From NCBI RefSeq assembly GCF_029094505.1, contig NZ_CP119108.1:2976001-3040000 (forward strand): a stretch of 64,000 bases of DNA, given 5' to 3'. The notes below the pieces were generated by a model. That model did not search any database and was not told the DNA's origin. It saw nothing but the letters and a program-made list of their open reading frames with translations. The DNA comes from Microbacterium horticulturae (GTDB lineage: Bacteria; Actinomycetota; Actinomycetes; Actinomycetales; Microbacteriaceae). A program made the position numbers and the translations under genes. Below are positions 31,206 through 64,000 of the stretch, piece after piece; the first letter of the stretch is position 1; each line of letters begins with the position of its first letter.

Positions 31206-31603
31206 CGGACGATCACCGCCTTTCGCTTCGCCGTCCAGATCGACGGCTGCAGTTCTTCGGGAATGTACGACATCCGCACGCGCAGCACGAACGTCACATC
31301 ATGGATGCCGCGGGCCAGCCCCCCGGCCTTGGGAACCGTGAGCACGGCCGCCTCGTCCATCGGCCAGCGCGCGTCGGTCGAGGTCTGCAGCTCGGCGAAC
31401 GAGTAGTCGCCGGTGGGCAGGGTCCAGCGGATGTCGTCGCCGTCGAACTCTTCACCGTCGACGATGACCGTCGGCTTGTCGAGCAGGTTGCCCCACATGC
31501 CGCGGTAATAGGGACTGCGCACGCGCAGCTGGAACCCCGTGGGGGCGTCTTCAGGTCCGGTGTTGTGGAACCCCGCGGCCTGGATGAGCGGTTCTTCAAG
31601 CAT
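31202..31603 (-). CDS. C-glycoside deglycosidase beta-subunit-like (DUF6379-type)
   Basis: 133 residues from ATG 31603, which overlaps the oxidase stop by 8 bp. A small beta-sandwich protein: FQLRVRSPYYRGMWGNLL (~24-41), IVDGEEFDGDDIRWTLPTG (~47-65), FVLRVRMSYIPEELQ (~107). The same pattern (core of hydrophobic strand, VDG, then a Y-I-P region) recurs in the other beta-type genes of this window. It partners the TIM-barrel subunit downstream. Confidence 0.75.
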   Translation of the reverse strand: MLEEPLIQAAGFHNTGPEDAPTGFQLRVRSPYYRGMWGNLLDKPTVIVDGEEFDGDDIRWTLPTGDYSFAELQTSTDARWPMDEAAVLTVPKAGGLARGIHDVTFVLRVRMSYIPEELQPSIWTAKRKAVIVR

Positions 31604-33188
31604 GCTCTTCCTCTCTGTTCGATGTGAGGTCGTCGGCCAGCTGTCGTGCACCGCGCACGGCGAGGGCGACGCTGGTCAGGGTCGGGTTCATGGTGTTCGC
31701 GGTCGGGATGAGCCCGTTGCCGCCCACGACGAGGTTCTCGTACCCCCACACCCGTGAGTAGGGGTCGGCGACCGAGGTGCCGTCGTCGCTCTCGCCCATC
31801 CGCATCGTGCCCATGTAGTGCAGGCTCGATCCGTTCGGCAGCAGGCGCGGCTGGGCGACGAACTCGCCGAGCGCGCCTCCCGCGCGACGGAGCAGCGCGG
31901 TGGCCTGCTCGATCTCGCTCTCTTCGCGCTCGGTCAGCGCGTACTCGATCGTCATGTTCGGCAGCCCGCGGTAGTCGAGCTCGTCTTCATCGAACCGCAC
32001 GCCGTCTTCGACACGGGGATGCTTGCGGACCCCGTACCCCATGTTCACGTATCCCCATCGGTTGCCGGCGGCGGGATGCTCGGGGTCGAGCGCGAACGGC
32101 GGGTTCTCGGCATACATCACCTGCAGCGAGTACGGGTGGTCGGGTTCGGAGAACGGGATGCGGTTGACGGCCGCCACCGGATCCGTGGGGTTCTGCGCGC
32201 GCCGTGCGAGTTCCTGCGCGAGCTCGTCGTCGCTGACCAGGCGCGACATCCGTGCCCCGTCCAGAGCGACGGTGCTGATGATCACGTGGTGCTCGGTGAG
32301 ATAGCGGCCCAGCGCCGCGGGGCGGATGCCCGAGGCCCAGAGCAGCTGCGGCGTCCGGAAGGCGTCCGCGGCGACGACGACCACATCGGCCGGCACCGTC
32401 TCCTGCTCATGCGTGCGCAGGTCTTCGACCGTGACGCCGGTGACGCGGGTTCCGTCGTGCTCGACCCGCCGCACCAGCGTGAGATCGCGCAGGGTGAACC
32501 GCGACGACTCGGACGTGCCGGGCTCGATCAGCGGCCCCAGCACGAAATCGGCCCCCGCCCACACCATGGTGCCGTCAGCCTGCGGGTCGCCGGCGACCGG
32601 CAGAGTGCTCGGTCCGAAGCCCGCGGGCAGTTCGCCGGCGAACTCGTCGGCCAGCTGCGTCGAGATCGCCCGTGAGATGGCCGAGTCGGCGAAGGCGTCG
32701 GTGCGCACGTGCAGCAGCCGGTCGGCTTCAGCGAGCAGGCCTGCCCACTCCTCATCGCCGATGAACGGCACACGCTCGCTGAACGACGGCGACGGAGTCG
32801 CGCACGTCCAGTGGGCGCCCATGCCTCCGACGTTGGTGGAGGCCGCTCCCGCAGGAAACTGCGTCGCGTGCGCTGCCCCGGGACCGCCGAAGTCGAGCAG
32901 GTACGTGCCGCCGCGGGCGGTGAACATGCCCTCGGCGACGACCGACTCGGGAATGCCGAGCGATTCGCGATACCGGCCGGCCTGCGGCCCCTGCGACCGC
33001 TCGCGAGCGCGCTCTTTCTCGTCAGGGTCGGCGATGTTGCGCACGCTCGCGCCGGGCACCTCGGTCAGCTGGGGCCCCGCCTCGAACATGATCAGGCGGG
33101 CATCGGGCAGCTGCTCGAGGAGCACCCGCGCGTAGGCGGCGCCGATCGGCCCGCTGCCGACGACGGCGATGGTGGGGACTCTGCTCAT
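31596..33188 (-). CDS. CarA-like FAD-dependent C-glycoside 3-oxidase (GMC/pyranose oxidase type)
   Basis: 530 residues. FAD-binding GSGPIGAAYARVL (~11-23), an acidic MFEAGPQ strand end (~35), a glycine-rich NVGGMGAHWTC (~118) near the isoalloxazine, and the C-terminal catalytic pair: His in SSLHYMGTMRMG (~455) and Asn in ANTMNPTLTSVALAVRG (~495-511), as in pyranose 2-oxidase relatives. Such enzymes oxidise the sugar C3 hydroxyl of C-glycosides, making the C-C bond labile. It sits between an MFS transporter (ATGA overlap) and the deglycosidase pair (8-bp overlap). A paralogue lies at 53142-54713. Confidence 0.85.
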   Translation of the reverse strand: MSRVPTIAVVGSGPIGAAYARVLLEQLPDARLIMFEAGPQLTEVPGASVRNIADPDEKERARERSQGPQAGRYRESLGIPESVVAEGMFTARGGTYLLDFGGPGAAHATQFPAGAASTNVGGMGAHWTCATPSPSFSERVPFIGDEEWAGLLAEADRLLHVRTDAFADSAISRAISTQLADEFAGELPAGFGPSTLPVAGDPQADGTMVWAGADFVLGPLIEPGTSESSRFTLRDLTLVRRVEHDGTRVTGVTVEDLRTHEQETVPADVVVVAADAFRTPQLLWASGIRPAALGRYLTEHHVIISTVALDGARMSRLVSDDELAQELARRAQNPTDPVAAVNRIPFSEPDHPYSLQVMYAENPPFALDPEHPAAGNRWGYVNMGYGVRKHPRVEDGVRFDEDELDYRGLPNMTIEYALTEREESEIEQATALLRRAGGALGEFVAQPRLLPNGSSLHYMGTMRMGESDDGTSVADPYSRVWGYENLVVGGNGLIPTANTMNPTLTSVALAVRGARQLADDLTSNREEEHA

Positions 33189-41484: not shown

Positions 41485-41859
41485 ATGACTCTCACTGCTC
41501 TGCGCGCCGATGCGCTCTCGACGACGCCCGGCGGCTTCGAGCTGCGGCTGTCGCTGCCCTGGATCCGCGCTCTCCCGCTGCAGAGCCTGCACGATGTCGC
41601 GGTGCAGCTCGACGGCACGGCCGTCGGCGATCTGCGCTTCCCCGATGCGAGTGAGCGGTGGTGGCCCGCACAGGATCGTGTGGTCCTGCGGGGCGGTGAG
41701 CCGGTGGCACCCGGCCCCCACGATGTCATCATCGACTTCGCTCTTCTCGTCCCCTATCTGCAGATGGGGCCTGACGGCCCCCTGCGGCTCCCGTTCCACG
41801 AGCAGCGGACGCTGCAGACGGATGCCGCGCTCACGAGCGTCTCGGAGGACATCGCGTGA
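41485..41859 (+). CDS. C-glycoside deglycosidase beta-subunit-like protein
   Basis: 124 residues from ATG 41485 (AAGGAC upstream). It shares the pattern of the other beta genes: FELRLSLPWIRALPLQSLHD (~18-37), VQLDGTAVGDLRF (~40), WWPAQDRVVL (~58), IIDFALLVPYLQM (~80). The stop overlaps the next start as GTGA, so a stoichiometric complex with the TIM-barrel protein is expected. Confidence 0.7.
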   Translation: MTLTALRADALSTTPGGFELRLSLPWIRALPLQSLHDVAVQLDGTAVGDLRFPDASERWWPAQDRVVLRGGEPVAPGPHDVIIDFALLVPYLQMGPDGPLRLPFHEQRTLQTDAALTSVSEDIA

Positions 41860-42854
41860 CCGCGCTGCCTGAGACGTGGACGCTGGCGGCGTCGGCATTC
41901 AACTGGACCCCCGACGTGCTGCGCGCCGAGCACTCGACGCACGAGATCGCGAGCGCGATACCGGGGTCGGGTATCGCGTCGACCATCGAGATCGAACTGG
42001 GTCAGACGCTGCGGACCTTTCCGGATGTGGACGCCACCGAGGTGCGAGCCCTGCGTGCAGCGCTCAACGCGGTCGGCGGAGGCATCTCGATCGTGGGGAT
42101 CTCGCTCGACGACTGGCAGCTGTCCGCCGACGGCGCGGCCCGGCGGCGCACCGAGGACGAGCGCCTCGCATTCCTCGTCCCGCAGTTGAGCGCCGCCCAC
42201 GACCTCGGCGCCACGGGCGTGCGCCTGCCCATCGGCCAGGCCGGCGCCGCCCTGCTCGAGCGCACCATGCCGCTGCTGTACGAACTCGACCTCGTCTTGT
42301 ACGAAGAGGTGCAGGGGCGCCAGACCCCGCACGATCCCGCGTACGCCGACGCGTACGAGGTTGTGGCGCGGTTCGACGATCCGCGTCTGCGGCTTCTCGT
42401 GGACATCAGCATGCTCATGCCTGCGCTGCCGGTGAGCTACCTCACGGCGCTCACCGCAGGCGGCGTCGATCCCGCATTGGTTCGTCTGCTGGAGACCGAA
42501 TGGCGTGCTCCCGAGACGCAGGCTGCTGTGTTCGACGCGCTGCGGGCCGGCTCCGTACCGCCCGGCGTGCACACGTTGTTCATGGATCTCGTCGTGCGAT
42601 TCGGTCGGTCGGATGCCGCCGACCTGCGCGAGATCCTGCCGCTCGTCGGCGGCTTCCATCTCAAGTTCTGGGACCTCGATGACACCGACGCTCGGGTGTC
42701 GAAGCCGATGCGCGATCTGGGTGCGCTGCTGCGCGCGAGCGCCTTCACCGGCACCCTGTGCAGCGAGTGGGGCGGGCACGAATGGCTGGAGGCCGATGCC
42801 ACCGAGATGACAAGGGAGCACCTGGCCCTGGCATCCCGCGCCCTCAGCGCATAG
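41856..42854 (+). CDS. C-glycoside deglycosidase alpha-subunit-like TIM-barrel protein
   Basis: 332 residues, GTG start overlapping the beta stop. Presumed metal ligands: Glu in LVLYEEVQ (~147), Asp in LLVDISMLM (~180), His in GGFHLKFWDLDD (~267), Glu in LCSEWGGHEW (~306). It lacks the longer N-terminal segments of the alpha subunit at 51580, so it is a divergent member. With its beta partner it would cleave a 3-oxidised C-glycoside or a related substrate; specificity is unknown. Confidence 0.7.
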   Translation: MTALPETWTLAASAFNWTPDVLRAEHSTHEIASAIPGSGIASTIEIELGQTLRTFPDVDATEVRALRAALNAVGGGISIVGISLDDWQLSADGAARRRTEDERLAFLVPQLSAAHDLGATGVRLPIGQAGAALLERTMPLLYELDLVLYEEVQGRQTPHDPAYADAYEVVARFDDPRLRLLVDISMLMPALPVSYLTALTAGGVDPALVRLLETEWRAPETQAAVFDALRAGSVPPGVHTLFMDLVVRFGRSDAADLREILPLVGGFHLKFWDLDDTDARVSKPMRDLGALLRASAFTGTLCSEWGGHEWLEADATEMTREHLALASRALSA

Positions 42855-50374: not shown

Positions 50375-51583
50375 TCAATGGCCCGTGGCGAGCGCCGGAA
50401 CCTCTGTGCGCTCCCAGGCCGAGTCGTTCGCGGCGCTGCGCTCGACCGCAGCGAGCACCCGCTGCACGCTGAGGCCTTCGGCGAACGACGGATGTGGCTG
50501 GCGGTCGTCGTGGATCGCCTGCACGAGGTCAACGACCTGGTGGACGAAGCCGTGCTCGTAGCCGAGCATATGTCCCGCGGGCCACCAGGAGGACAGGTAG
50601 GGATGCTGCGGCTCGGTCACCAGGATCTTCGTAAAGCCCTGCCGATCCGCGGGCGCCGTGCGGTCATAGAACTGCAGGCTGTTGAGGTCTTCCAGGTCGA
50701 ACACGAGAGCCCCGCGATCTCCCGACACCTCGATCGTGAGAGCGTTCTTGCGGCCGGTCGCGAACCGGGTCGCCTCGAACGAGACCAGCGCGCCGCCCGA
50801 CAGCCGGCCCGTGAAGATCGCCGCATCGTCGACGGTGACCTCGTCGTACCCCTCGCCCGCCGTGCCGGTGAAGCCCGACGCCGCAGCCGCCCGCGGGCGC
50901 TGCGTGACGATCGTCTCGACCGTGCCCGAGACGGCTTCGACCCTCTGGCCGGTCACGAACTGCGTCATGTCGATGATGTGCGCGCCGATGTCGCCGAGCG
51001 CCCCCGAGCCCGCGTGCTCCTTCTGCAGCCGCCACGCCATCGGTGCCTGCGGATCGACGAGCCAGTCCTGCCGATACGCGGCACGCACCTGCTGCACCGT
51101 GCCCACGGCCCCCTGCGCGATCAGATCGCGCAGGAATGTGACGGCGGGAACACGCCGATAGGTGAACCCGACCATCGCCTTGGCTCCCCGCCCGGCCGCG
51201 CGCTCGGCGGCTGCGAGCATCGCCTCGGCCTCGGCGACCGAGTTTGCCAGCGGCTTCTCGCACAGCACGTGCTTGCCTGCGTCGAGAGCTGCGATGGCGA
51301 TCTCGGCGTGCGCGTCGCCGGGGGTCACGATGTCGACGATGTCGATGTCGGGACGCCCGATCACCTCACGCCAGTCCGTCGCCGACTCCGCCCAGCCCCA
51401 GTGGGCGGCAGCATCCGCCACCGCATCCGGGCGGCGACCGACGAGGACCGCCATCTCGACGCCTTCGGGAAGATCGAACACGTGCGGCGCCTGGCGCCAT
51501 CCCACCGAATGGGTCGCCCCCATGAATCCGTAGCCGATCATAGCGACCCGCAAGGGCCGCCGGGCACCGTTGCCGTCGCTCAT
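50375..51583 (-). CDS. Gfo/Idh/MocA-family oxidoreductase
   Basis: 402 residues from ATG 51583 (ATGA overlap with the deglycosidase alpha stop). NAD(P) site VAMIGYGFMGATHS (~13), IVTPGDAHAEIA (~83), E-K-P motif CEKPLANSVAEAEA (~109), GSGALGDIGAHIID (~190) with the conserved Asp/His pair. Probably reduces or oxidises the keto-sugar product of the deglycosidase encoded immediately upstream. Confidence 0.9.
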   Translation of the reverse strand: MSDGNGARRPLRVAMIGYGFMGATHSVGWRQAPHVFDLPEGVEMAVLVGRRPDAVADAAAHWGWAESATDWREVIGRPDIDIVDIVTPGDAHAEIAIAALDAGKHVLCEKPLANSVAEAEAMLAAAERAAGRGAKAMVGFTYRRVPAVTFLRDLIAQGAVGTVQQVRAAYRQDWLVDPQAPMAWRLQKEHAGSGALGDIGAHIIDMTQFVTGQRVEAVSGTVETIVTQRPRAAAASGFTGTAGEGYDEVTVDDAAIFTGRLSGGALVSFEATRFATGRKNALTIEVSGDRGALVFDLEDLNSLQFYDRTAPADRQGFTKILVTEPQHPYLSSWWPAGHMLGYEHGFVHQVVDLVQAIHDDRQPHPSFAEGLSVQRVLAAVERSAANDSAWERTEVPALATGH

Positions 51584-52704
51584 GCGCGTGCTCCCGTCGT
51601 GGTGGGTTTCGTCTCGCTTCGCTCGCTCAGCCACCTGTGGAGTTGCGGGCGAGCGGTGACGGCATCCGTCACCATCTGCGAACCGGCATCTCGTGCCGCC
51701 GACCGCTGCACGGCCTGCTCGCCCCCGACGATCTCGAAGGCGCTCTGCCAGTTGTTCCAGTGCCAGCCCTCGTACTCGCTCGAGATCGCGCCGTTGTAGC
51801 CGTTCTCCACGAACAGTCGGATGAGGTCGCGCACCGGCACCGAGGGCTCTTCGCCGGTCTCGTCGATACCGAAGAACTTGCCGTGGATATGACGGATCCA
51901 GGGCATGATCTCGAGCCAGTCGTCCACACGCGCAGGGCCGAACAGACCGGTGCCGTTGATAGCGAAGTCGATGCCCAGATCGGGCCGGCCGCCCTGCGCA
52001 CCGAGGGCGATGAACCGCCCGAACCGCTGCCCGTGGTCGGCCTGATCGGCCGGCGGGCCCTCTTGCGAGAACTCATCCCACAGCGCCACGACCTGCGCGA
52101 GCAGCTCATCGGAGGCCCCCCGGCGCCGATAAGCCTCGATGAGCGAGGGGGCGAACCCCGACGTGGTGGCGCCCCAGTCGGCGGTGAAGCCCAGGAAAGG
52201 CGACCCGACCTTCTCGTACCGGTCGCGCAGCGCGAGGATGCGCGGGTGCGACGCGTACTGGTCGGCGTGCACCTCGAGCGCGAGCGTAACCCCGTTCTTC
52301 TCAGCGAGCGGTGCGAGGCGCTCCATCGAGTCGGGCTCGAGCGAGATCTGCACGCGGGCGATCGGGAACCCGAGCTTGGCGGCCGCTTCGATCTGCGGAC
52401 GCATGTATTCGATGAGTTCGTCGTCGGTGAGCAGACGATCGCGGTGGATGCCGATGTCGGCGTTGATGGCCAGCGAGGTCTGCACGAGCCCGAGCTCGTC
52501 GACGAGCTCACGGAAACGCTCGGCGAACGCATCGTCGATCGCGGGGAATCCGCGGAAGCTCGAGAAGCCGACGATCTCCAGGCCCGGCCCGTACCCGTCG
52601 TCGGCGACCTTGCGCAGCAGCTGCTCGAGGTCGTACTCGCGCCCGTGGAATGCGCGGGTGAAGCTGTAGAGCGTGACTCCCTGGATCGGTGCGCCGAGGC
52701 TCAT
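51580..52704 (-). CDS. C-glycoside deglycosidase alpha-subunit-like protein
   Basis: 374 residues. TIM barrel with metal ligands Glu in LALEVHADQ (~142), Asp in GFTADWGATT (~178), His in IRHIHGKFFGID (~270), Glu in ISSEYEGWHWNN (~306). Overlaps both neighbours by ATGA. The C-terminal tail (WLSERSETKPTTTGARA) is encoded by a copy of the REP-type repeat (51601-51640), so the original terminus was probably shorter. Partners the beta gene upstream and the CarA-like oxidase two genes upstream. Confidence 0.8.
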   Translation of the reverse strand: MSLGAPIQGVTLYSFTRAFHGREYDLEQLLRKVADDGYGPGLEIVGFSSFRGFPAIDDAFAERFRELVDELGLVQTSLAINADIGIHRDRLLTDDELIEYMRPQIEAAAKLGFPIARVQISLEPDSMERLAPLAEKNGVTLALEVHADQYASHPRILALRDRYEKVGSPFLGFTADWGATTSGFAPSLIEAYRRRGASDELLAQVVALWDEFSQEGPPADQADHGQRFGRFIALGAQGGRPDLGIDFAINGTGLFGPARVDDWLEIMPWIRHIHGKFFGIDETGEEPSVPVRDLIRLFVENGYNGAISSEYEGWHWNNWQSAFEIVGGEQAVQRSAARDAGSQMVTDAVTARPQLHRWLSERSETKPTTTGARA

Positions 52705-53111
52705 GCCGCCACCTCCGTCGTCGTCGCCGGCATCGTCTTGGAGTCGCGCTCCTCGATGCGCAGCACCTGATCACCATCGATGACGATGTACGGGATGTAG
52801 AGCTTGAGCTCGACGTCGACCCGATGGTCGTCGGCGCCGATCGTCACCGGGATGTCGCCGGAGACGACAGCCGAGTCCACCGGGAACCACCACTGCTCGG
52901 TGTCGTCGGCGAGGTCGGCGAGGCGGAAGGTGCGGCCGTTCATGGTCCAGCGCAACGACTCGGCGGGGGCCGGCACGCCGTCGACGGAGAACGACACCTC
53001 CGAGATGCACGATCCGGGCAGGGCTCGATACCACGGGATGCGCACCTCGACAGCACTACGGGTGCCGTCGGTCGTGAGCGTGCCCTGCTCGATGATGCGG
53101 TCGGGAATCAC
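52701..53111 (-). CDS. C-glycoside deglycosidase beta-subunit-like protein
   Basis: 136 residues from a GTG at 53111 with GGAGG 6-7 bp upstream. Beta-sandwich pattern: VEVRIPWYRALPGSCISEV (~21-39), FSVDGVPAP (~41), WWFPVDSAVVSG (~73), LKLYIPYIVIDG (~103). It is very similar in layout to the first 130 residues of the fused protein at 59475. It has its own promoter inside the end of the oxidase gene. Confidence 0.8.
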   Translation of the reverse strand: MIPDRIIEQGTLTTDGTRSAVEVRIPWYRALPGSCISEVSFSVDGVPAPAESLRWTMNGRTFRLADLADDTEQWWFPVDSAVVSGDIPVTIGADDHRVDVELKLYIPYIVIDGDQVLRIEERDSKTMPATTTEVAA

Positions 53112-53141: not shown

Positions 53142-54713
53142 CTACAGCTTAATGTCGGATTTAGACATAAGCAAGAGTTCAGCGACGATGTGACGCGCAC
53201 CGCGGACCGCGAGCGCCACCGAGGTGAGGGTCGGATTGCAGGCGGTCGCGGTGGGGATCACGCCGTTGCCGGCGACGAAGAGGCCTGGGACAGTCCACAC
53301 TTCGCTGTCCGGCCCGCATACGCTGCGCCCGTCGTCGCGCTCGCCCATGCGCACGGTGCCCTGGTAGTGCAGCGACGCGCCGGGCGGCATCGTGAAGGGG
53401 CGCTCGTCGAGCGGCTCGCCCACCGCGTGCCCGAGCCGCACGATCTCGGCGCGGGCACGGTCCAACACCTCGTGATCCTGTTCGGTGAGCCGGTAATGGA
53501 GGCGCATCGCCGGCATACCGTACGAGTCGGTCTCATCGTCGGCGAAGACGACGCGATCGTCCCACTGCAGATCCTTCGCAGTGAACAGGCCCAGACCGAC
53601 GATGGAGCCCGGTACGGCCGGATCGTCGTCGGCGAGCGGCACGGGCGATGCGTCCAGCTGCATGATCTGCCCATGGAACGGCTCGGCATCAGTGAACGGC
53701 ACCCAGCTGACGCCGCTCTGCTCGCTGAGCGCGCCGCCGACGACATCGTGCTCGTCGGACTGGCCGGCGGGGCCGGATGGCACACCCGGCGGCGTCTCTC
53801 GGATGCGCGAAGCGAAGACCACTTGCGATTGGTCGTTGAGCATGCGACCGAGTGCGGCGGGACGGATGCCGGAGGCCCACAGCACCTGCGGTGTGCGCAG
53901 CGCGTCGGCGGCCACGACGACGAACCGGGCACCCACGGTGTGGGCCTCGCCGGTGCGCAGATCGCGTACTTCCACGGCGGCCGCGTGACCGGCGTCGACG
54001 AGAACACGCGTCACGAGCGATTCGTCGTACAGCGTGAAGTTCTCATTCGCGCGGGTCACGTCGCCGAAGACGACGTCGGACCCCGACCAGACGAGCCGGC
54101 CGTCCGCGCGCCGGTGCACGGCCAGCGGCATCCGCTGCACTCTGCGGTCGGGTGCGCGCCCGTCATCGACGGCCGCCGCGAGCCGCTCACGGACCAGTTC
54201 GGTGTAGGGCGCGCCGTCGAATGCGTCAGTGGTGACGCCGAGCAGGCGGTCACCCTCGTCGAGCAGCTCGTCGAGATCGTCGAGAAAGTCGATGCGCTCG
54301 CTGTCACCGGGCCGCGGGCACGCCGCGGTCCAGTGCGCGCCCATGCCCCCGACGTTGCTCGAGAACGCGGCGACGGGCAGCCCGTCCTCGTCCGGCTGTC
54401 GAAAGCCGTCGGCCAGCAGGTACGTGCCGGGCCGGGCGAGTCGATCACCCGATTTCACGGCACCGGGCGAGTTCACGGTCGCCTCTCCCGCGCCCGGGCC
54501 CTCGGAGCGCTCCTGAGCGCGCGCGCGGGCCGCGGCATCCACGATGTTCTTCACATGCGATCCGGGCGGATCGGAGACCGTCGGGCCCACCTCGAACATC
54601 GCGATGCGGGCGCGCGGCGCGCGTTCGCTGAGGATGCGCGCATAGGCGGCGCCGGTCGGTCCGCTGCCGACGATGACGACGTCCACGTCGTGCGGATAGG
54701 AGCGTGTACTCAT
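53142..54713 (-). CDS. CarA-like FAD-dependent C-glycoside 3-oxidase, second copy
   Basis: 523 residues. FAD site VVIVGSGPTGAAYARIL (~12-28), NVGGMGAHWTAACPRPGDSE (~119-138), catalytic His in ASLHYQGTVRMG (~450) and Asn in ATACNPTLTSVALAVRGARH (~489-508). Same architecture as the oxidase at 31596, with clear divergence in the middle. In the operon it follows the ABC permeases and an NTF2-like gene and precedes the deglycosidase pair, a complete uptake-oxidation-cleavage cassette. Confidence 0.86.
   Translation of the reverse strand: MSTRSYPHDVDVVIVGSGPTGAAYARILSERAPRARIAMFEVGPTVSDPPGSHVKNIVDAAARARAQERSEGPGAGEATVNSPGAVKSGDRLARPGTYLLADGFRQPDEDGLPVAAFSSNVGGMGAHWTAACPRPGDSERIDFLDDLDELLDEGDRLLGVTTDAFDGAPYTELVRERLAAAVDDGRAPDRRVQRMPLAVHRRADGRLVWSGSDVVFGDVTRANENFTLYDESLVTRVLVDAGHAAAVEVRDLRTGEAHTVGARFVVVAADALRTPQVLWASGIRPAALGRMLNDQSQVVFASRIRETPPGVPSGPAGQSDEHDVVGGALSEQSGVSWVPFTDAEPFHGQIMQLDASPVPLADDDPAVPGSIVGLGLFTAKDLQWDDRVVFADDETDSYGMPAMRLHYRLTEQDHEVLDRARAEIVRLGHAVGEPLDERPFTMPPGASLHYQGTVRMGERDDGRSVCGPDSEVWTVPGLFVAGNGVIPTATACNPTLTSVALAVRGARHIVAELLLMSKSDIKL
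53146..53174 (-). promoter_or_regulatory. Internal promoter before the beta/alpha deglycosidase genes
   Basis: Minus strand: -35 TTGCTT (53174-53169), 17-bp spacer, -10 TAAGCT (53151-53146), start near 53139, 28 nt before the beta-subunit GTG. The recurrent motif GCTTATGTCTAAA (53172-53160) lies over the -35 and spacer. It sits within the last codons of the oxidase gene. Confidence 0.5.
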
Positions 54714-55100: not shown

Positions 55101-55937
55101 TCAGCCCTTGAGCCCGCCGGCGAAGCCCTGGATGAACTTCTTCTGTGCGAACAGATAGAACAGCAGGATCGGGACCATCGAGATGATGACGATCGCGAAG
55201 ATGGAGTTCCACTTCGAGACGAGCGAGCCGATGAAGAAGTACATCGACACCGGCAGCGTCTGGTTCTCCGATCCGCCCAGGAAGATCAGCGACGTGAAGA
55301 AGTCGTTCCAGACGATGAGGCCCGCGAGGATCGCGACGGTGCCTGTCGCCGGCGACATCAGCGGCAGCACTATGCGGAAGAAGATCTGCGTACGGTTGGC
55401 GCCGTCGATGGCGGCGGCCTCTTCGTACTCCGTCCCGAGCCCGCGGAAGAAGCCAGCGTACAGGAAGATCGACAGTGGCAGCAGCATCCCCGTGTAGAGC
55501 ACGATCATGCCCCAGACACTGCCGGTCAGTCCGATCGTGCGGGCGCCGATATAGAGCGGGACGGTGCCGAGTTGCGTGGGCAGCACGATGGCCACGAGGA
55601 AGAGGTAGTAGACGCCGCGCGACCATCGCCGCGTGCTGCGCGAGATGACGTAGCCGGTGAGTGCACCGAGAAGGACCAGACCGAGAATGGACCCGGCGGT
55701 CATGATGATGCTGTTGATCAGACCGTGCACGATGTCGGCGTTGCCCTGGCCGTTCAGCGCCGTCGCGAAGCTCTCAAGAGACGGATGCTGCGGCCACGCG
55801 AGCGTCGAGGTGCTGTAGATCTCGCTGTCGGGCTTCAGCGCCATCGCGATGAGGAAGTAGAACGGGAGCAGGAAGATCAGGGCGAGCACCCATAGTCCGA
55901 TCTCACGCAGAGCGGTGCGCTTCGTATAGCGGAACAC
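55101..55937 (-). CDS. Carbohydrate ABC transporter permease (MalG type)
   Basis: 278 residues, six hydrophobic segments starting LWVLALIFLLPFYFLIAMAL (~15). The cytoplasmic EAA loop reads EYEEAAAIDGANRTQIFFRI (~189-208), the ATPase contact site. Pairs with the MalF-type permease 3 bp upstream and the binding protein at 56968. No ATPase gene is present; a shared MsmK/UgpC-like ATPase elsewhere is presumed. Confidence 0.93.
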   Translation of the reverse strand: MFRYTKRTALREIGLWVLALIFLLPFYFLIAMALKPDSEIYSTSTLAWPQHPSLESFATALNGQGNADIVHGLINSIIMTAGSILGLVLLGALTGYVISRSTRRWSRGVYYLFLVAIVLPTQLGTVPLYIGARTIGLTGSVWGMIVLYTGMLLPLSIFLYAGFFRGLGTEYEEAAAIDGANRTQIFFRIVLPLMSPATGTVAILAGLIVWNDFFTSLIFLGGSENQTLPVSMYFFIGSLVSKWNSIFAIVIISMVPILLFYLFAQKKFIQGFAGGLKG

Positions 55938-56900: not shown

Positions 56901-56967
56901 TTCTCCTCGTGATCTTCTCGGGAAGGCGCCGTCGGCCGACGAGCCGGCCGACGGCGCGAGGTCGGGC

Positions 56968-58236
56968 TTATCCCCAGGCCTTGTCCATGTCGGCAAGCAC
57001 CTGATCGACGGTCTTCTGCCCCGTGAGGAGGCCCTGGACGCCGCTGCCGAGCGCGTCGTACACCGCGGCGTTCGGCCAGCTCGCGTTCGGCAGCGGGACG
57101 AAGTCGCCCTTGTCGACGATGTCCGCGACGGGCGCGAACGGCGTATCGGACAGGTCTTGTCCCACCGGGAGTGAGCCCGCCGCGTCGGCGAACACCTTCT
57201 GCCCGTCGGCCGTGGCCACCCAGTCGGCGAATTTCTGTGCCGCAGCCTTGTTCTTCGACTTCTTCGAGATCGACAGCGCATAGTCGGCTCCGGCGATGCC
57301 GAACGCTTCGCCCCCGGCCGCCGGCGGGATCGCCTGGATCTGGAACTCCTGATCCTTCGCGTTCTGCTTCAGGTCAGAGGCCGATCCGCTCGGCACGAAC
57401 GCGGCGAGCGACGAACCCTGGAGCATGTTCGAGGTGATGGAGTCGAAGCCGGCCCCCTGGACGCCCTTCTGGAAACAGCCCGCCTTGTTCATGTCGACGA
57501 TGTCCTCGAGGGTGTCCTTCCAGCCCTGCGACGACGCGAACGTCGTCTTGTCGGCCGCACGCTCCTCGTTCCAGGTCGGGTCATCGGCGTAGACGCGCGT
57601 CGCCGAGATCGACATCGCCATGAGGCCGGTGTTCGGCGGCATGGAGCCGGCGAGGACGAAGAGCGACTTGCCCTTCGCTGCGACATCCTTGCAGGAGGAG
57701 ATGAGCCCGTCCCAGTCCGTCGGGTACGTGAATCCGGCCGACTTCGCGGTCGTGGCGTTGAGTACCGAACCGACGAAGGTGAGCCCGAGGGCGACGCCGA
57801 AGGTGTCACCCTCGACCTCGAACTGCGACTCGGATCCGCTCGGAATGACCTTGGTCGCGCTGTCGGCGAGCGGCTCGAGCAGACCCGCCTTGGCCAGTGT
57901 CACGGTGCTGTAGGTCTGCCCCACGCCCGGCGCCGTCTGGAACGCATCGGACGCGTTGCCCGCATTCAGCTGCGTCGTCAGCGTCTGCCCGTAAGAATCG
58001 TTCGGCACCTCGTTGAGGGTGATCTTGACGTCGGGATTCTCCTTCATATACGCCTCGGCGAGGGCCTTGTACGGCGCGACGACGGCACTGTTGGTGACAG
58101 CGTATGAGAGCGTGAACCCGGTGGATGCTGCGTTGTCGTCCCCGGCGCCGGAACATCCGGCGAGGATGAGTGCGCCTGCGGCCGCAGCGGCGACGAGGCC
58201 GGTGCGAACCACGCGGGAGCGGTGATGCTGTGACAT
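56968..58236 (-). CDS. Carbohydrate ABC transporter substrate-binding lipoprotein
   Basis: 422 residues from ATG 58236. Signal peptide with lipobox LILAGCSG (Cys ~29), mature family-1 binding protein. First gene of the nine-gene operon (binding protein, two permeases, NTF2-like, oxidase, beta, alpha, Gfo/Idh, isomerase). It presumably delivers the C-glycoside or its sugar part. The paralogue at 44620 shares long identical stretches. Upstream, two CATAAG motifs and an inverted repeat lie between it and the LysR gene. Confidence 0.93.
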   Translation of the reverse strand: MSQHHRSRVVRTGLVAAAAAGALILAGCSGAGDDNAASTGFTLSYAVTNSAVVAPYKALAEAYMKENPDVKITLNEVPNDSYGQTLTTQLNAGNASDAFQTAPGVGQTYSTVTLAKAGLLEPLADSATKVIPSGSESQFEVEGDTFGVALGLTFVGSVLNATTAKSAGFTYPTDWDGLISSCKDVAAKGKSLFVLAGSMPPNTGLMAMSISATRVYADDPTWNEERAADKTTFASSQGWKDTLEDIVDMNKAGCFQKGVQGAGFDSITSNMLQGSSLAAFVPSGSASDLKQNAKDQEFQIQAIPPAAGGEAFGIAGADYALSISKKSKNKAAAQKFADWVATADGQKVFADAAGSLPVGQDLSDTPFAPVADIVDKGDFVPLPNASWPNAAVYDALGSGVQGLLTGQKTVDQVLADMDKAWG

Positions 58237-58314
58237 GATGCAAGCCCTTCTGACTTCCTTGTCGGCGGCGCGTTCGGGAAGAATCCGCGCCGTATGCATC
58301 AGTATGACCTAGAT

Positions 58315-58469: not shown

Positions 58470-59414
58470 GTGGCTGATGACGCGCTCCTTTCCCGACTTG
58501 ATCTGAACCTGCTCGTTTCACTCGACGCGCTTCTCATCGAGCGCAGCGTCACACGTGCTGCCGAACGGCTTCATCTGAGCCAGCCGGCACTCAGCGCGTC
58601 GCTCGCCCGACTGCGCGCGCACTTCGGCGACCCGATTCTTGCGCGCCGTGGCAACACGTACGAGCTCACCCCCTTCGCTCTGCGACTCATCGATCACACG
58701 GCCACCGCCCTCGAGGCGGCCCGCAGGGTCTTTGAGAGCCAGGCCACATGGGAGCCCGCAGAATCGACGCGCGAGTTCTCGATCTACGGCTCCGACTACG
58801 GTTTCACGACGCTCGGCCGTGTCGTCTCCGAGCTCGCCGCAGAGCGGGCGCCCGGGGTGCGCTTCCGGTTCATGCTGCACAACCCCGTGGTCGTCGAGGA
58901 CGCAGCCAATCGGCTGCGCTCCGTGGACGGGATGGTCATCCCCCACGGCTTCCTCTCCGACCTGTCGTATGCGGACCTGTGGCGCGACGATTGGGTCGCC
59001 ATCGTCGCCCGCGACAACGCCGAGGTGGGCGACGAACTGTCTCTGGCCGAGCTCGCGCAGATGCCGTGGGTCATGAACTACCAGACGCGTTCGGCGTTCA
59101 CCTCCGCCGAGCGGCAGGTGCAGCAACTCGGCATCGAGCCGCACGTCGAGGTCGTGGTGGAGAGCTTCTTGGCGATGCCCTACTTCATCCAGGGAACCAA
59201 GCGCGTCGGCATCATCCAGGCGGCACTCGCCCCGCACGCGGTGCGCACCGAGGACGTCCGCGTTGTCGGGCTGCCCTTCGAACCCACGTCGCTCATGAAC
59301 GCCCTGTGGTGGCACCCCGCGCACAGCCGGGACCCCGAGCACACCTGGATGCGCGATCTGTTCGTCGAAGCCGGCAGAATCGTCGCTTCGAGCCTGCCGG
59401 GCGCCACCGGCTGA
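58470..59414 (+). CDS. LysR-family transcriptional regulator
   Basis: 314 residues from a GTG at 58470 (AAGGAT about 10 bp upstream). N-terminal LysR HTH: LDLNLLVSLDALLIERSVTR (~10-29) then AAERLHLSQPALSASLARLR, as in NodD/PcpR-type members. The ligand-binding domain follows (~95-300). Divergent from the nine-gene C-glycoside operon, so it is the prime candidate activator of that operon; phenolic aglycones are typical effectors of this subgroup (inference). Confidence 0.9.
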   Translation: MADDALLSRLDLNLLVSLDALLIERSVTRAAERLHLSQPALSASLARLRAHFGDPILARRGNTYELTPFALRLIDHTATALEAARRVFESQATWEPAESTREFSIYGSDYGFTTLGRVVSELAAERAPGVRFRFMLHNPVVVEDAANRLRSVDGMVIPHGFLSDLSYADLWRDDWVAIVARDNAEVGDELSLAELAQMPWVMNYQTRSAFTSAERQVQQLGIEPHVEVVVESFLAMPYFIQGTKRVGIIQAALAPHAVRTEDVRVVGLPFEPTSLMNALWWHPAHSRDPEHTWMRDLFVEAGRIVASSLPGATG

Positions 59415-59474
59415 TCACCGCGGGTCGGTGCGTCGCGCAACCTTCCGGAAGCGCGGCGCCCGTGGACGATGCCG

Positions 59475-60953
59475 TCAGGCCGGCTGACCCACGGAACGCA
59501 TCGCCGAGCGGATGAGGTCGTGCTGCTTGCGCACGAGCAGCAGCGGGTCCACCTCGCCGAGCTCGGCGAAGGCGTGCCCCTCCCATTCGCTCGACCAGTA
59601 CCCGCGGTACCCGCCGTCGACGAACACGCGCACCAGCTCCGGATAGTCGATGGCCGGCTCCTGGCCGTTCTCGTCGATGTCGTAGAACTTCGCATGCACA
59701 TGCAGGATCTGCGGCATGATGTCGGCCCACTCGTGCGGATCGACGTGACCGTGCATGTTGAAGGCGAGGTGGGCGAACGATCCCAGGCGGCCCGGTTCGA
59801 AGCCACGTCCGCGCAGGTAGCCGATGAACTCCTCCTGCCGGTCGCGCATGGTGGCATCCGTCGCCCAGATGCGCTGCAGGGTCCCGAGCGCTTCATCGTC
59901 GAGACCGGCCCGTTGCAGGGCCCGGAGCATGGTCGGCGACATAGCGTGCATCGTCGCGGAGAAGTCGGTGACGAAGCCGAGCAGCGGCGAGTCGAGATCG
60001 GCGTAGGTCTCGCGCACGCGCAGGATCTCCGGCGCGTTGGGCCCCATGGGCGCGTGGATCTCATAGGCGAGCTTCAAGTCCAGGTCTTCTGCGACCGGCA
60101 GCAGCCGTCGCAGAAGGTCGGGCTTGGCCGACTGGATGCGCACCAGGGGGAACCCGAGCTTCTTCGCGCCCTCGAACATGAGCTTCGAGAACTCGAACTC
60201 CTCATCGGGCGTCATGTCGCGATCGCGACGACGCCCCATGTCGAGATTCGCTCCGAACGAGCTCTCATTGAAGCCATGGCGGTCGAAGGCGGCGCGCCAG
60301 GTGCGCACGAAGTCGTCCGACACGTGCGGGTAGGTCGGCAGGACTTGGGATGCCACGATCTCGATGCCAGGACCGATTCCCAGTTCGGCGACGCGGTCGA
60401 GCAGGCCGTCGAAGTCGAACCAGCCGGCGCGGAACTCGGCACTGGCCGAGTACAGCGTCAGCCCGAGCCGGAACGGATCGTCCTCGGACGCGGGCGGCGG
60501 GGGTGTGACATCCGACACGAGCGCCGGCGCCGGCGCATCGTGATCGGTCGCGGTGAGAGTGAGCTGTTGGTGCACGATGTTGGGCACGTAGATGCCCGGG
60601 CCGCCGTTCTCACCCGGGGCAATCTGCATGTACGGCAGGCGGAGTTCGCCATGGATCGTGATGTCGTGCTGCTCACCGAGCGAGAGCGGCGCCTCACGAC
60701 GGACGATCAACAGCGGGTGCTCCTGCAGATACCAGAGCACCTCGCTCTGCCCGGGCAGCTCACTGAGTGCATAGCGCGTACCGGCGAGCTCGAAAGTGAG
60801 GTCATCCTCCGGCACGTCCTCACCGTCGATGCTCAACCGGATCGTCGTGACCGACGACAGCCACAGGCTGCGGTACCACGGGATGGTGAGTGAGATCGCG
60901 AACCCTTCGGGGTGGATGCGCAGACTGTCTTCAGCGATGAGTCCGTTGGGCAT
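59475..60953 (-). CDS. Single-chain C-glycoside deglycosidase: beta-alpha fusion
   Basis: 492 residues from ATG 60953 (AAGGAG 6 bp upstream). Residues ~1-130 match the separate beta subunits: FAISLTIPWYRSLWLSSVTT (~19-38), LSIDGEDVPEDDL (~40), LWYLQEHPLLIV (~72), LRLPYMQIAPGE (~102). A Pro-rich linker (PPPPASEDD, ~150) joins a complete TIM barrel like the alpha subunits: LTLYSASAEF (~164), LAYEIHAPMG (Glu, ~293), GFVTDFSATM (Asp, ~330), ILHVHAKFYDIDE (His, ~418), WSSEWEGHAF (Glu, ~455). No stop or frameshift interrupts it. It converges on the LysR gene and has its own promoter region. Confidence 0.82.
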   Translation of the reverse strand: MPNGLIAEDSLRIHPEGFAISLTIPWYRSLWLSSVTTIRLSIDGEDVPEDDLTFELAGTRYALSELPGQSEVLWYLQEHPLLIVRREAPLSLGEQHDITIHGELRLPYMQIAPGENGGPGIYVPNIVHQQLTLTATDHDAPAPALVSDVTPPPPASEDDPFRLGLTLYSASAEFRAGWFDFDGLLDRVAELGIGPGIEIVASQVLPTYPHVSDDFVRTWRAAFDRHGFNESSFGANLDMGRRRDRDMTPDEEFEFSKLMFEGAKKLGFPLVRIQSAKPDLLRRLLPVAEDLDLKLAYEIHAPMGPNAPEILRVRETYADLDSPLLGFVTDFSATMHAMSPTMLRALQRAGLDDEALGTLQRIWATDATMRDRQEEFIGYLRGRGFEPGRLGSFAHLAFNMHGHVDPHEWADIMPQILHVHAKFYDIDENGQEPAIDYPELVRVFVDGGYRGYWSSEWEGHAFAELGEVDPLLLVRKQHDLIRSAMRSVGQPA

Positions 60954-60994
60954 GATCGCTCCTTCATTGAGCACGGGTGGTCCGGCTGCTAACA

Positions 60995-61034
60995 CTAGCA
61001 ACTTCTATGTTCTTTTTGGGCATAAGTTTGCTAG
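60995..61034. promoter_or_regulatory. Candidate operator upstream of the fused deglycosidase
   Basis: CTAGCAA (60995-61001) and TTGCTAG (61028-61034) are exact 7-bp arms, followed inward by similar CTTCTATG/CATAAG bases. The minus-strand motif ACTTATGCCCAAA (61027-61015) lies within. It is 42-81 bp upstream of the coding start. Confidence 0.45.
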
Positions 61035-61129
61035 ATGGACACATAACCCTGGTCGATTGCGCGTCTGGCTGGCCCGGGACACATACATGACAGCCAGGAA
61101 GAGGCCACTCCCGGTGCGGTTTGGAATCC

Positions 61130-61633
61130 TCACCGCCCCTTGCGATCGAGGGAGCGATAACCTGCTCTGAAGAACAGCAGCGGTTCTGGGTCGTCAACGA
61201 CGGAGTTGAGGGTGCGCACGTGCCCCACGGCGATGTAGTGATCGCCGCCCGGGAATACGTCGGCGATCTCGCACTCGATGTGGGCGATGGCCCCGTCGAG
61301 CAGGGGAAGACCGAGCTGCCCGGGAAGCCACCTGACGCCGGAGAACTTGTCGTCCCTGTGCTGGGCGAAACGACTGCTGAGCTCATGCTGGTGTCCACCG
61401 AGAACATTGATGGCGAACCGGCCGCCGGCCGCGATGCGCCCCCAGCTCTTCGAATCGCGCGCGGGGCTGACCATCACCAGCGGTGGGTCCAGTGACAGCG
61501 AAACGAATGACTGGGCGGTCATGCCCGCCGGCTCGCCCACCTCGTCGATGCCGGTGATGACCACGACGCCGGTCGCAAAGTGGGACATCACCGTTCGGAG
61601 ATGCTCGGCGTCAATCTCTGCCACGGTGATCAT
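61130..61633 (-). CDS. Flavin reductase family protein
   Basis: 167 residues. Split-barrel FMN-binding fold: MSHFATGVVVITG (~16), GMTAQSFVSLSLDPPLVMVS (~37-56), FAINVLGGHQHELSSRFA (~73), CEIADVFPGGDHYIAVGHV (~121). HpaC/NtaB-type reductases supply reduced flavin to a partner monooxygenase; the LLM oxygenase three genes upstream is the likely partner. The start overlaps the amidohydrolase stop (ATGA). Confidence 0.9.
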   Translation of the reverse strand: MITVAEIDAEHLRTVMSHFATGVVVITGIDEVGEPAGMTAQSFVSLSLDPPLVMVSPARDSKSWGRIAAGGRFAINVLGGHQHELSSRFAQHRDDKFSGVRWLPGQLGLPLLDGAIAHIECEIADVFPGGDHYIAVGHVRTLNSVVDDPEPLLFFRAGYRSLDRKGR

Positions 61634-62634
61634 CGTCCCTCCGGAATGGGCAGGCGCAGCAGTTCTTGTGCGTTCACGTCGAGGATGCGGTGCTTGTCGT
61701 CATCGGTGAGATCGGCGCAGCCCTGCACCATCTCGACGGCCTCGGTGAGGCTGGCGAAGATGGCGTCGGAACCGAGCAGGATCCGCTCGACTCCGAGCGC
61801 CTGCTTCGTCAGACGCAGCGCCGCGGGTATGTCCTGCACTGAGGTGTCGAAGTAGGTGTTGCGCCGGAACAGGCCCATTGGGTCGTCGCGCTCGAAGGGC
61901 AGCTCATCCATCCACGCGAACAGGCCGGCACCGACGGCTTTGACCGCCGACATGTCCAGTCCGCGATGCAGGTTCCGCTCGTACCGCTGCCAGAGGTACG
62001 GCAGTGTTCCGCCGCACAGAGCGAAGATGAAGGAGATGTTGGGATGTCGCGTCGTGATGCCCGAGAGACCCACCCGCAGTGCCGCCATGGCGATCTGAGT
62101 GGTCGAGCCCAGCAACATGTTGAGACCGAACTGCTCGAGCCCCGGATGTGCGTTCGAGTCGGTCCCGACCGGGTGAACATAGACGGCGACCGAGCGAGGC
62201 TTGCGCCCGAGGTGTTCCCACAGCGGCGCGTACGCCGCGTCGTCGATCGGCACACCGCCAACCAAGCACGGCAGCGCGATGCCCGCGAGCCCGAGCTCGT
62301 CGATGGCACGGTCGGCCTCAGCGATCGCGGCGTCGACATGCGGTAGCGGCAGCGACGCGAAGCCCCCAAACCGACCGCCGGACTGAATAGCTATCGTCGC
62401 GTATAGGTCGTTGATGTGCTGGGTGGCGGCGAGGGATGCCGCGGCGTCTTCAACCTCGGTGTTCAATCCGACGGCAGAGAAGAGCTGTACGTCTACACCG
62501 AGCCGATCCATTTCGGCGAGCCGTTCGCCGAGATCGTTCTCCTGTCCGGCGAACGCGAGGTCGCGACGACCTGCGGCGACGAGCAGATCAATGTACGAGC
62601 GCGCCCAGTAGTGCGCGTGCACGTCGATCCTCAT
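61630..62634 (-). CDS. ACMSD-type amidohydrolase lacking the catalytic His
   Basis: 334 residues from ATG 62634 (ATGA overlap with the TetR stop). The metal site looks intact: IDVHAHYW (~3-10), VYVHPVG (~178), LGSDAIFAS (~295). But where the family has A-H-G-G-G, with the catalytic His, this protein reads FALCGGTLPYLW (~226), i.e. Cys. Non-oxidative decarboxylation may therefore be lost or changed to hydrolysis. Operon: LLM oxygenase, TetR, this gene, flavin reductase. Confidence 0.82.
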   Translation of the reverse strand: MRIDVHAHYWARSYIDLLVAAGRRDLAFAGQENDLGERLAEMDRLGVDVQLFSAVGLNTEVEDAAASLAATQHINDLYATIAIQSGGRFGGFASLPLPHVDAAIAEADRAIDELGLAGIALPCLVGGVPIDDAAYAPLWEHLGRKPRSVAVYVHPVGTDSNAHPGLEQFGLNMLLGSTTQIAMAALRVGLSGITTRHPNISFIFALCGGTLPYLWQRYERNLHRGLDMSAVKAVGAGLFAWMDELPFERDDPMGLFRRNTYFDTSVQDIPAALRLTKQALGVERILLGSDAIFASLTEAVEMVQGCADLTDDDKHRILDVNAQELLRLPIPEGR

Positions 62635-63224
62635 TCTTCTTCTCCCTTCAGAATGAACCCCGCCATCGCACGGTCGAAGGCATCCTTCACCGGAGCGTCG
62701 GGATCGAGCAGAATCAACGTCTGCAGTCCGTTGATGAGCGCCATGATCGCCGTCGCGGACGAGGCGACGGTCCATCCCGGCGCGAGGATGCCCAGTGCAT
62801 CGGCGCGCTGCGCACGCTGGAAGATCTGGTCATGGATGACGCGGTTACGCTCGAGAATGAACGCCCGGGTGTCTGCGTCGCCGGCGATTGCCTCCCCTTG
62901 CAGCACGTGCTGCAGCCGAATGCGCGCCCGCCCCTCTTCTCCGAGTCCGAGGAACCGGATCAGCGAGGCGAACGGCGAAGCGTCGTCGATGGATGCCGCC
63001 GCAATGAGCATTTGATCGGCCCAGTGACGGTCGCGGTCGAGCACGGCACGGAACAGGTCCCGTTTGCTGGGAAACCGTCCGAGCACGGACTGTCGGGTCA
63101 CGCCAAGCCGCTCGGCGACCTGGTCTAGCGTCGATGCCGAGAATCCGTTCGCGGCGAACACCTCAGCTGCCGCATCGATCACCGTCTCGGCTGCGAGTTC
63201 GTGGCCGCGGCGCGGCCGGGCCAT
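62631..63224 (-). CDS. TetR-family transcriptional regulator
   Basis: 197 residues. HTH at ~15-60: AAAEVFAANGFSASTLDQVA then ERLGVTRQSVLGRFPSKRDLF. The C-terminal half is helical. Its ATG shares one base with the LLM stop (TGATG) and its stop overlaps the amidohydrolase start (ATGA), so it is embedded in the operon it may control. Confidence 0.88.
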   Translation of the reverse strand: MARPRRGHELAAETVIDAAAEVFAANGFSASTLDQVAERLGVTRQSVLGRFPSKRDLFRAVLDRDRHWADQMLIAAASIDDASPFASLIRFLGLGEEGRARIRLQHVLQGEAIAGDADTRAFILERNRVIHDQIFQRAQRADALGILAPGWTVASSATAIMALINGLQTLILLDPDAPVKDAFDRAMAGFILKGEEE

Positions 63225-64000
63225 CAGGCGACCCCTTTCGCCAGATGCAGCGGGTCGACCTCGTCATCGCGCAGCGCAGGGAACAACTCGTGGCCGATGT
63301 TGGGCAGCACTTCCCGGGTGAACAGCTCGTACGACTCGGCAACCAAGGCCGGGTCGGCGGTTCCCGCGGTGAACCGAATGTTGACATGTTCGACTCCCGC
63401 GGCCGCATACCCTCGGAACGTCTCGATGAGCTGGTCGGGGGTTCCTCCGGCCATCCACTCCTGCACGTGTCGAGAGTTCCGCGGAGCCGGGTCGCCTGTC
63501 AGATCCGCCTTCGACAGCTCGCGCAGACTGCGCCTGTCGACGGAGCGGTCCATCATCGGGTTGCGGCCGGCCAGTGCCTCGGCGATCTCCCACGCGCGCT
63601 CCTCCGTGCGGCCGCAGAACACGTGACGGGTCACCAGCGACAGGCGGGCGGCTTCTCTCCGCTGCTGCTCAGGAATGCCGGCCTCTTCCATCGCGGCGCG
63701 ATGCCGGGCGAGCTTCTCGGCCGCCGCCTCGGGCAAGCAGGGGCCGAGGAACAGCGGGTAGCCCCGGCGCGCGACGCCGTCGATCTTGACATCGGTGTTC
63801 GTGCCGATCGCCTTGAGAGGTCCGCGGACGCGCCATGAGGCCGGCATCATCCGCCCGGCCAGCTCGCCGTGGTCCCACTCCGAACCCAGCTGGAGCGGAG
63901 CATCCCCCGTACGTAGCGCATGGATGCGATTCACGTCGTCGAGCTTGGCGTTGAAGATCTCATCCTTACGCTCCATCGGCAGGTCCCACACCCGGAAATC
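63224..64000 (-). CDS. LLM-class flavin-dependent oxygenase (5'-truncated by window edge)
   Basis: The frame is open to the right edge, so 258 C-terminal residues are visible and the start is outside. Luciferase-like features: YPLFLGPCLPEAAAEKLARH, LVTRHVFCGRTEERAWEIAE, MAGGTPDQLIETFRGYAAAG and the C-terminal VEHVNIRFTAG strand (each typical of the bacterial LLM C-terminal half). Reduced flavin probably comes from the reductase encoded at 61130. Likely hydroxylates or cleaves an aromatic or heterocyclic compound. Confidence 0.85.
   Translation of the reverse strand, partial: DFRVWDLPMERKDEIFNAKLDDVNRIHALRTGDAPLQLGSEWDHGELAGRMMPASWRVRGPLKAIGTNTDVKIDGVARRGYPLFLGPCLPEAAAEKLARHRAAMEEAGIPEQQRREAARLSLVTRHVFCGRTEERAWEIAEALAGRNPMMDRSVDRRSLRELSKADLTGDPAPRNSRHVQEWMAGGTPDQLIETFRGYAAAGVEHVNIRFTAGTADPALVAESYELFTREVLPNIGHELFPALRDDEVDPLHLAKGVA

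What the first reader, a model, noticed from the sequence alone, without database searches (positions are those of the whole stretch)
59475..60953. Natural beta-alpha fusion of a C-glycoside deglycosidase
Seen: one uninterrupted 492-codon frame whose first ~130 residues match the separate beta genes at 41485 and 52701, and whose last ~330 match the separate alpha genes at 51580 and 41856, joined by a Pro-rich linker. Known C-glycoside deglycosidases (DfgAB, DgpBC, CarBC, AgCGD families) are described as two-gene alpha/beta complexes, with the gene order variable. A single-chain version with all metal ligands present would be a new architecture, and its separate promoter suggests a distinct substrate.
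Basis: partly seen in the sequence, partly recalled or inferred. Interest (0 to 1): 0.78.

Follow-up and report, generated by a model that had tools for sequence, protein, structure and literature searches.

The report
Single-chain C-glycoside-cleaving enzyme, common in Microbacteriaceae
The gene is real and joins the two usually separate halves of an enzyme that removes sugar attached by a carbon-carbon bond, but such joined enzymes are common in this bacterial family and one relative already has a solved structure, so it is a neat example rather than a new architecture.

Summary
Window 59475-60953 (-) is one 492-codon frame (ATG behind AAGGAG): N-terminal CGDB beta domain, Pro/Ala-rich linker, C-terminal TIM-barrel alpha domain. 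All metal ligands, the catalytic His and the aglycone Tyr are present. An AlphaFold model (pLDDT 88) matches both AgCGD2 subunits.

Of 80 genome loci kept, 68 carry the same fusion. Databases already name such proteins C-glycoside deglycosidases. A natural 435-aa beta-alpha chain from Microbacterium testaceum has solved structures, 8QRZ and 8UN2.

Less obvious: the window gene is not in the 8QRZ clade. Fused chains sit in three CGD clades, and one clade of all fused rows is rejected on alpha and beta trees. Nine loci have a still-split orthologue, five with ATGA-overlapping genes. The A. globiformis contig that encodes AgCGD2 carries both fusion types. My paper searches found no mention of natural CGD fusions. 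Most likely function: single-chain metal-dependent 3-keto-C-glycoside lyase. The 'separate promoter' was not shown.

The parts
59475..60953 (-). F1: single-chain beta-alpha C-glycoside deglycosidase, 492 aa
60959..60964 (-). Shine-Dalgarno-like AAGGAG, 5 nt before the ATG
   Evidence: sequence
60552..60953 (-). beta (CGDB) domain, residues 1-134; Tyr27 aligns with PuCGE Tyr39-beta
   Evidence: role of Tyr39 from PMC13273386 (passage)
60474..60563 (-). Pro/Ala-rich linker, about residues 131-160 (overlaps the last beta-domain strand)
59487..60473 (-). alpha TIM-barrel domain, residues 161-489; Glu298, His300, Asp330, His420, Lys422, Glu456, Glu458 = AgCGD2 Glu147, His149, Asp179, His269, Lys271, Glu305, Glu307
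58470..59414 (+). LysR-family regulator, convergent with F1; homologue in 57 of 80 loci
56968..58299 (-). extracellular solute-binding protein (SBP_bac_1); homologue in 61 of 80 loci
55101..55937 (-). ABC permease (a second permease lies within 55941-57281); homologue in 56 of 80 loci
53142..54713 (-). GMC oxidoreductase, best NCBIfam hit pyranose oxidase (227.7 bits, below its cut-off of 544.9); likely C3 oxidation step; homologue in 46 of 80 loci
51580..53111 (-). split CGD pair: beta 52701-53111, alpha 51580-52704, ATGA overlap; in one clade with the second split pair of A. globiformis, probably AgCGD1 (that name was not tested)
41485..42854 (+). split CGD-like pair (beta 41485-41859, alpha 41856-42854, GTGA overlap); alpha has Gln at the His149 site and Gly at the Glu307 site; both Pfam matches are below the cut-offs
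30303..31651 (-). split CGD pair of the 8QRZ type (beta 31202-31651, alpha 30303-31205, ATGA overlap), fused in many relatives
31596..33188 (-). second GMC oxidoreductase, beside the 8QRZ-type pair
61130..63991 (-). genes before F1 on the same strand: flavin reductase, amidohydrolase_2, TetR, luciferase-like monooxygenase; no tblastn hit at 1e-15 in any of the 80 loci

Best explanation
The gene encodes a single-chain, metal-dependent 3-keto-C-glycoside lyase (C-glycoside deglycosidase). A GMC oxidase of the cluster first oxidises C3 of the sugar (inferred). In the fused enzyme the alpha barrel binds Mn2+ or a similar metal through Glu298, Asp330, His420, Lys422 and Glu456. His300, helped by Glu458, takes the proton from C2 of the 3-keto sugar, while the beta domain, through Tyr27 and the interface pocket, holds and activates the phenolic aglycone. 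Beta-elimination then splits the C-C bond into aglycone and 2-hydroxy-3-keto-glucal. The beta and alpha parts come from one ancestral, neighbouring and probably overlapping gene pair; the linker corresponds to the beta C-terminal strand plus the Ala/Pro-rich N-terminal tail of a once-separate alpha. Shown here: architecture, residues, fold match of each domain, fusion phylogeny. Inferred from characterised relatives: chemistry, metal, substrate, and that beta caps the active site.
Against: No activity is known to me for any F1 protein. In the window the gene stands beside aromatic-degradation-like genes (61-64 kb) and not behind the 8QRZ-type gene as in 60 of 80 loci. The Foldseek match over both domains of 8QRZ has rmsd 17.7, so the domain arrangement differs from 8QRZ or is wrongly predicted. 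AgCGD2 Thr3-beta, said to contact the aglycone, falls at or before the F1 start Met. AgCGD2 Arg123 is Gln in 88 of 88.
Confidence: 0.86

Rival explanations
1. It is simply the orthologue of the Microbacterium testaceum single-chain CGD already solved (8QRZ), so nothing separates it from that enzyme.
For: Same beta-alpha order in one chain; 8qrz_A matches in both domains, the beta part weakly (15 bits, i-E 0.08; E 0.0014 with the beta part alone); Foldseek rank 2.
Against: 8QRZ goes with the F2 type: the A. globiformis F2 frame matches it end to end at 745 bits, the window protein at 110 bits. F1 and F2 fall in separate clades on alpha and beta trees, and one clade of all fused rows is rejected (dlnL 802, p-AU 2.6e-47; dlnL 209, p-AU 3.9e-12). 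F2 has Gln for His269 in 75 of 75 and gaps at AgCGD2 columns 241, 242, 248 and 249, with 9-23 against 30-38 residues between HMM edges. 13 of the 27 family genomes with CGDB carry both as fused chains.
Confidence: 0.03
2. The fused enzyme has drifted to another 3-keto-glycoside reaction, such as O-glycoside elimination or hydration of 2-hydroxy-3-keto-glucal, with the split CGDs doing the C-C cleavage.
For: Most of these clusters carry several CGDs, and redundancy invites specialisation. [quoted passage not shown]
Against: The residues tied to C-C cleavage, including the beta Tyr and the AgCGD2-like pocket (Asn248 and Met249 in 88 of 88, Phe242 in 85 of 88), are kept.
Confidence: 0.1
3. Frame or annotation artefact: the two domains are translated separately or the fusion is an assembly error.
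For: The homologous pairs in the same window are separate genes with 4-nt overlaps; one in-frame GTG lies in the linker.
Against: 68 of 80 loci carry the same single frame; the 120 listed homologues are 487-496 aa; no ATG in the linker.
Confidence: 0.01

Closest known systems
AgCGD2 (AgCarB2-C2), Arthrobacter globiformis, PDB 7DNM/7DNN
   Same: Closest solved relative in both domains: alpha 57-58%, beta 37-38% identity; same metal ligands, His149, Glu307 and Met249/Phe242 pocket.
   Different: Two chains, genes in alpha-beta order; the window protein is one chain in beta-alpha order with a Pro/Ala linker. AgCGD2 accepted only C8-linked orientin of six compounds (PMC8563793, passages); the F1 substrate is unknown.
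Microbacterium testaceum C-glucosyl deglycosidase, PDB 8QRZ/8UN2 (435 aa)
   Same: Natural single chain, beta then alpha.
   Different: Separate clade; shorter alpha with gaps at the four lid-side columns examined, Gln at the His269 site, short linker. Its paper was not found in the held library.
DgpBC (PuCGD/PuCGE), DfgAB (EuCGD), MiCGD (CarBC), AgCGD1, MtCGD, PurBC
   Same: Same two folds and chemistry class.
   Different: Two-gene heterodimers or alpha4-beta4 octamers (PMC8563793, PMC12724307, passages).

Membership tests
C-glycoside deglycosidase (3-keto-C-glycoside lyase) | CGDB/DUF6379 beta domain | tested here: met
   PF19906 62.3 bits against a cut-off of 27.6; 7dnm_B structural match E 4.3e-14
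C-glycoside deglycosidase (3-keto-C-glycoside lyase) | xylose-isomerase-like TIM-barrel alpha | tested here: met
C-glycoside deglycosidase (3-keto-C-glycoside lyase) | metal ligands Glu147, Asp179, His269, Lys271, Glu305 (AgCGD2) | tested here: met
   all present in the window protein and in 88 of 88 fused F1 rows
C-glycoside deglycosidase (3-keto-C-glycoside lyase) | catalytic His149 with Glu307, and beta-subunit Tyr (PuCGE Tyr39) | tested here: met
   His300, Glu458, Tyr27
C-glycoside deglycosidase (3-keto-C-glycoside lyase) | beta domain packs over the alpha active site | tested here: inconclusive
   model pTM 0.88, but the coordinates could not be measured, and 8QRZ aligns over both domains only at rmsd 17.7
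C-glycoside deglycosidase (3-keto-C-glycoside lyase) | cleaves 3-keto C-glycosides | not testable with these tools
   needs an assay
8QRZ-type single-chain CGD (F2) | single beta-alpha chain | tested here: met
8QRZ-type single-chain CGD (F2) | same clade as the 435-aa chains | tested here: not met
   separate supported clades on alpha and beta trees
8QRZ-type single-chain CGD (F2) | gaps at AgCGD2 columns 241, 242, 248, 249 and Gln at the His269 site | tested here: not met
   window has residues at all four columns and His420

The most novel reading that the evidence does not exclude
F1 is an uncharacterised single-chain CGD family that arose by its own gene fusion at an overlapping beta-alpha gene pair, independently of the 8QRZ-type fusion and of a third one. 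CGD subunits would thus have been joined at least three times in Actinomycetota, perhaps to keep stoichiometry. The retained AgCGD2-like pocket predicts C8-glycoside preference.
Probability: 0.55. Interest if true: 0.42.

Novelty: new member of a known kind. Interest (0 to 1): 0.3.

Why it matters
Single-chain CGDs would be handier catalysts and models than the heterodimers for cutting or making C-glycosides. The split orthologues give a natural before-and-after pair for asking what subunit fusion changes. The A. globiformis NBRC 12137 contig that encodes AgCGD2 also carries two single-chain CGD genes, so substrate assignments in that organism may be incomplete.

Tried and rejected
Idea that the fusion is new as an architecture: rejected.

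Separate promoter: sigma-70-like and terminator scans of 59300-61300 gave 0 and 0. An inverted repeat TTGCTAGTGTTAGCA lies at 60987-61001 before F1; with up to 2 mismatches it occurs at no other place in the window, but 6 of 100 shuffles had as many matches. Not followed. Actinobacterial promoters need not fit the scan, so this is no proof of absence.

NCBIfam gave no family for F1 or for the four other CGD proteins scanned.

Papers: eight searches. Eight papers were looked at by passage only (outline of PMC8563793); in none of the passages is 'fused' or 'fusion' applied to a natural CGD. The library holds only open-licence PMC papers; the papers behind 8QRZ, 8QVC and 9M3A were not found in it, and supplements were not available. 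PMC8563793 states that the DgpB and DgpC homologues it investigated 'existed side by side'.

Tree rows: representatives at 78% identity (53 of 338 alpha rows) plus the L079 and L058 rows. The first alpha tree (57 rows) needed 8 changes of the fused label, 6 forced. For the second (52 rows) five rows were dropped: L061 (frame broken), L020 (contig edge), and L121, L065_12338, L129 (long branches); it needs 6 changes, 4 forced. Four of the 52 were left out of the beta tree (48 rows): two with no beta found and two (L064, L066) whose nearest beta lay in a frame that also holds an alpha. These two count as split in the alpha tree. L066 has its own separate beta, but in L064 an alpha and a partial beta lie in one frame in alpha-beta order, in a locus whose F1 frame is broken; it may be a frame error or a further fusion. 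Changes cannot tell gain from loss without a root. The AU group was named after the classes had been seen.

Fused means beta and alpha in one stop-free frame by my own HMMs, not a proven single start. G487 and G714 have weak CGDB matches (below the Pfam cut-off) in frames of 524 and 514 aa; my HMMs found nothing there, so distant fusions may be missed.

Full report
Observation. The frame at 59475-60953 (-) is open over 492 codons, starts with ATG behind AAGGAG, and has two Pfam domains above their curated cut-offs: CGDB at 16-108 and AP_endonuc_2 at 186-476. All three separate pairs in the window overlap by 4 nt, ATGA or GTGA.

Is it new? The protein search scored 7996 candidates and gave 899 proteins at E <= 1e-3; only the best 120 were listed. 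Those are 487-496 aa and 80-98% identical, and by eye all but one (P0044, CGDB only) carry both Pfam domains. Names include 'C-glycoside deglycosidase beta subunit domain-containing protein'. In genome contigs 202 stretches matched a peptide pattern, 113 encode a relative, and the best 80 loci were kept. In 68 of these 80 the F1 homologue is one frame. The 12 others are two frame-broken copies (L061, L064), one cut by a contig end (L062) and nine with separate beta and alpha genes (L065, L069-L075, L077). In an even draw of the window's family, 27 of 398 genomes (the window's own included) hold CGDB. Of these 27, 20 have F1 fused, 14 F2 fused, 3 F3 fused and 22 at least one fusion; 113 beta-bearing frames were found in the regions fetched, 37 fused and 76 not. 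A phylum draw found 5 of 396, the window's own included and two below the Pfam cut-off. In the regions fetched from the other four, my HMMs found no fused chain; in two of them (L131, L132) they found nothing at all. So the fusion is common in this family and was not seen elsewhere in that small draw, although one search also found it in Arthrobacter, Pseudarthrobacter and Demequina.

A solved natural fusion. 8qrz_A and 8un2_A, 'Microbacterium testaceum C-glucosyl deglycosidase (CGD), wild type', released 2025-04-23, are single chains (435 aa) that match the window protein in the beta part (24-116, weakly) and the alpha part. The A. globiformis 432-aa F2 frame matches 8qrz end to end at 745 bits. 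The architecture is therefore known from structures, although none of the papers that I could search by passage discusses it.

Several fusions. F1 (about 490 aa, 30-38 residues between HMM edges), F2 (about 435 aa, 9-23 residues, gaps at four lid-side columns) and F3 (4 rows in frames of 476-498 aa, His149 to Gln, Glu307 to Gly) are separate. On the alpha tree (52 rows) the fused label needs 6 changes, 4 forced by starred branches. Holding all 14 fused rows together costs 802 log-likelihood units (p-AU 2.6e-47). The four F1 fused rows form one side of a branch (96/88). The beta tree (48 rows) agrees: 6 changes, 4 forced, 209 units, p-AU 3.9e-12, F1 99/97. A larger alpha tree with five doubtful rows needed 8 changes, 6 forced. 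Direction is not given by the trees; fusion rather than splitting is favoured because the characterised enzymes described in the papers seen are two-gene complexes, which is inference.

How the fusion arose. In five of the nine split F1 orthologue loci (L069, L070, L072, L073, L075) the beta stop overlaps the alpha start as ATGA; L077 overlaps by 1 nt; L065, L071 and L074 have gaps of 10-12 nt. In eight of the nine the separate alpha begins with an Ala/Pro-rich tail of 16 residues before the barrel domain; L077 lacks it. The F1 linker looks like the beta C-terminal strand plus this tail. A small indel at the overlap is the simplest route (inferred).

Neighbourhood. In 60 of the 80 loci an F2-type alpha gene, fused or split, ends within 400 nt before F1 on the same strand. 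Homologues of the window's LysR occur in 57, an ABC permease in 56, a TIM-barrel isomerase in 56, the GMC oxidase in 46 and a further CGD alpha in 37 (flanks are cut in some loci, so these are lower bounds). In the window the F2 pair sits about 28 kb away beside its own GMC oxidase. In A. globiformis NBRC 12137 (L079) F2 (from 1573) and F1 (2903-4369) lie about 8.5 kb before a gene whose alpha domain (12894-13877) is identical to 7dnm_A, AgCGD2 alpha, over all 328 residues compared.

Substrate. PMC8563793 (passages) links C8 preference of AgCGD2 to its Pro241/Phe242 loop and Met249. F1 keeps Met249 in 88 of 88 and Phe242 in 85 of 88, while Pro241 is mostly Ser or Ala. C8-linked substrates are a testable guess, no more.

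Verdict. A true, functional-looking single-chain CGD and a new member of a known kind. Its origin apart from the solved single-chain enzyme is the part worth telling.

Noticed in passing
window 41856-42854: CGD-like alpha with Gln in place of the catalytic His149 and Gly for Glu307, metal ligands kept; the 4 fused rows of this clade show the same changes. It may catalyse another reaction.
   Followed up: partly
window 30303-31651: 8QRZ-type CGD is split here by an ATGA overlap but fused in 14 of the 27 family genomes with CGDB; Gln replaces the metal ligand His269.
   Followed up: partly
window 60987-61001: Inverted repeat TTGCTAGTGTTAGCA between F1 and the flavin-reductase gene, the only place in the window at up to 2 mismatches; 6 of 100 shuffles had as many matches. 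Possible operator or chance.
   Followed up: no
window 61130-63991: Flavin reductase (HsaB-like, below NCBIfam cut-off), amidohydrolase_2, TetR and luciferase-like monooxygenase before F1, without tblastn hits at 1e-15 in the 80 loci: perhaps aglycone degradation acquired separately.
   Followed up: no
window 34842-40093: Amidohydrolase, FAD monooxygenase, glyoxalase/dioxygenase-fold and Gfo/Idh/MocA genes near the second GMC oxidase: looks like an aromatic ring catabolism block.
   Followed up: no
G364, contig of 3391135 bases: 11 CGDB places over cut-off in one genome of the family, some with identical scores near the two contig ends, as if duplicated.
   Followed up: no
L064 18110-20407: An AgCGD2-type alpha and a partial beta lie in one frame in alpha-beta order, in a locus with other broken frames: a frame error or an alpha-beta fusion.
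   Followed up: no
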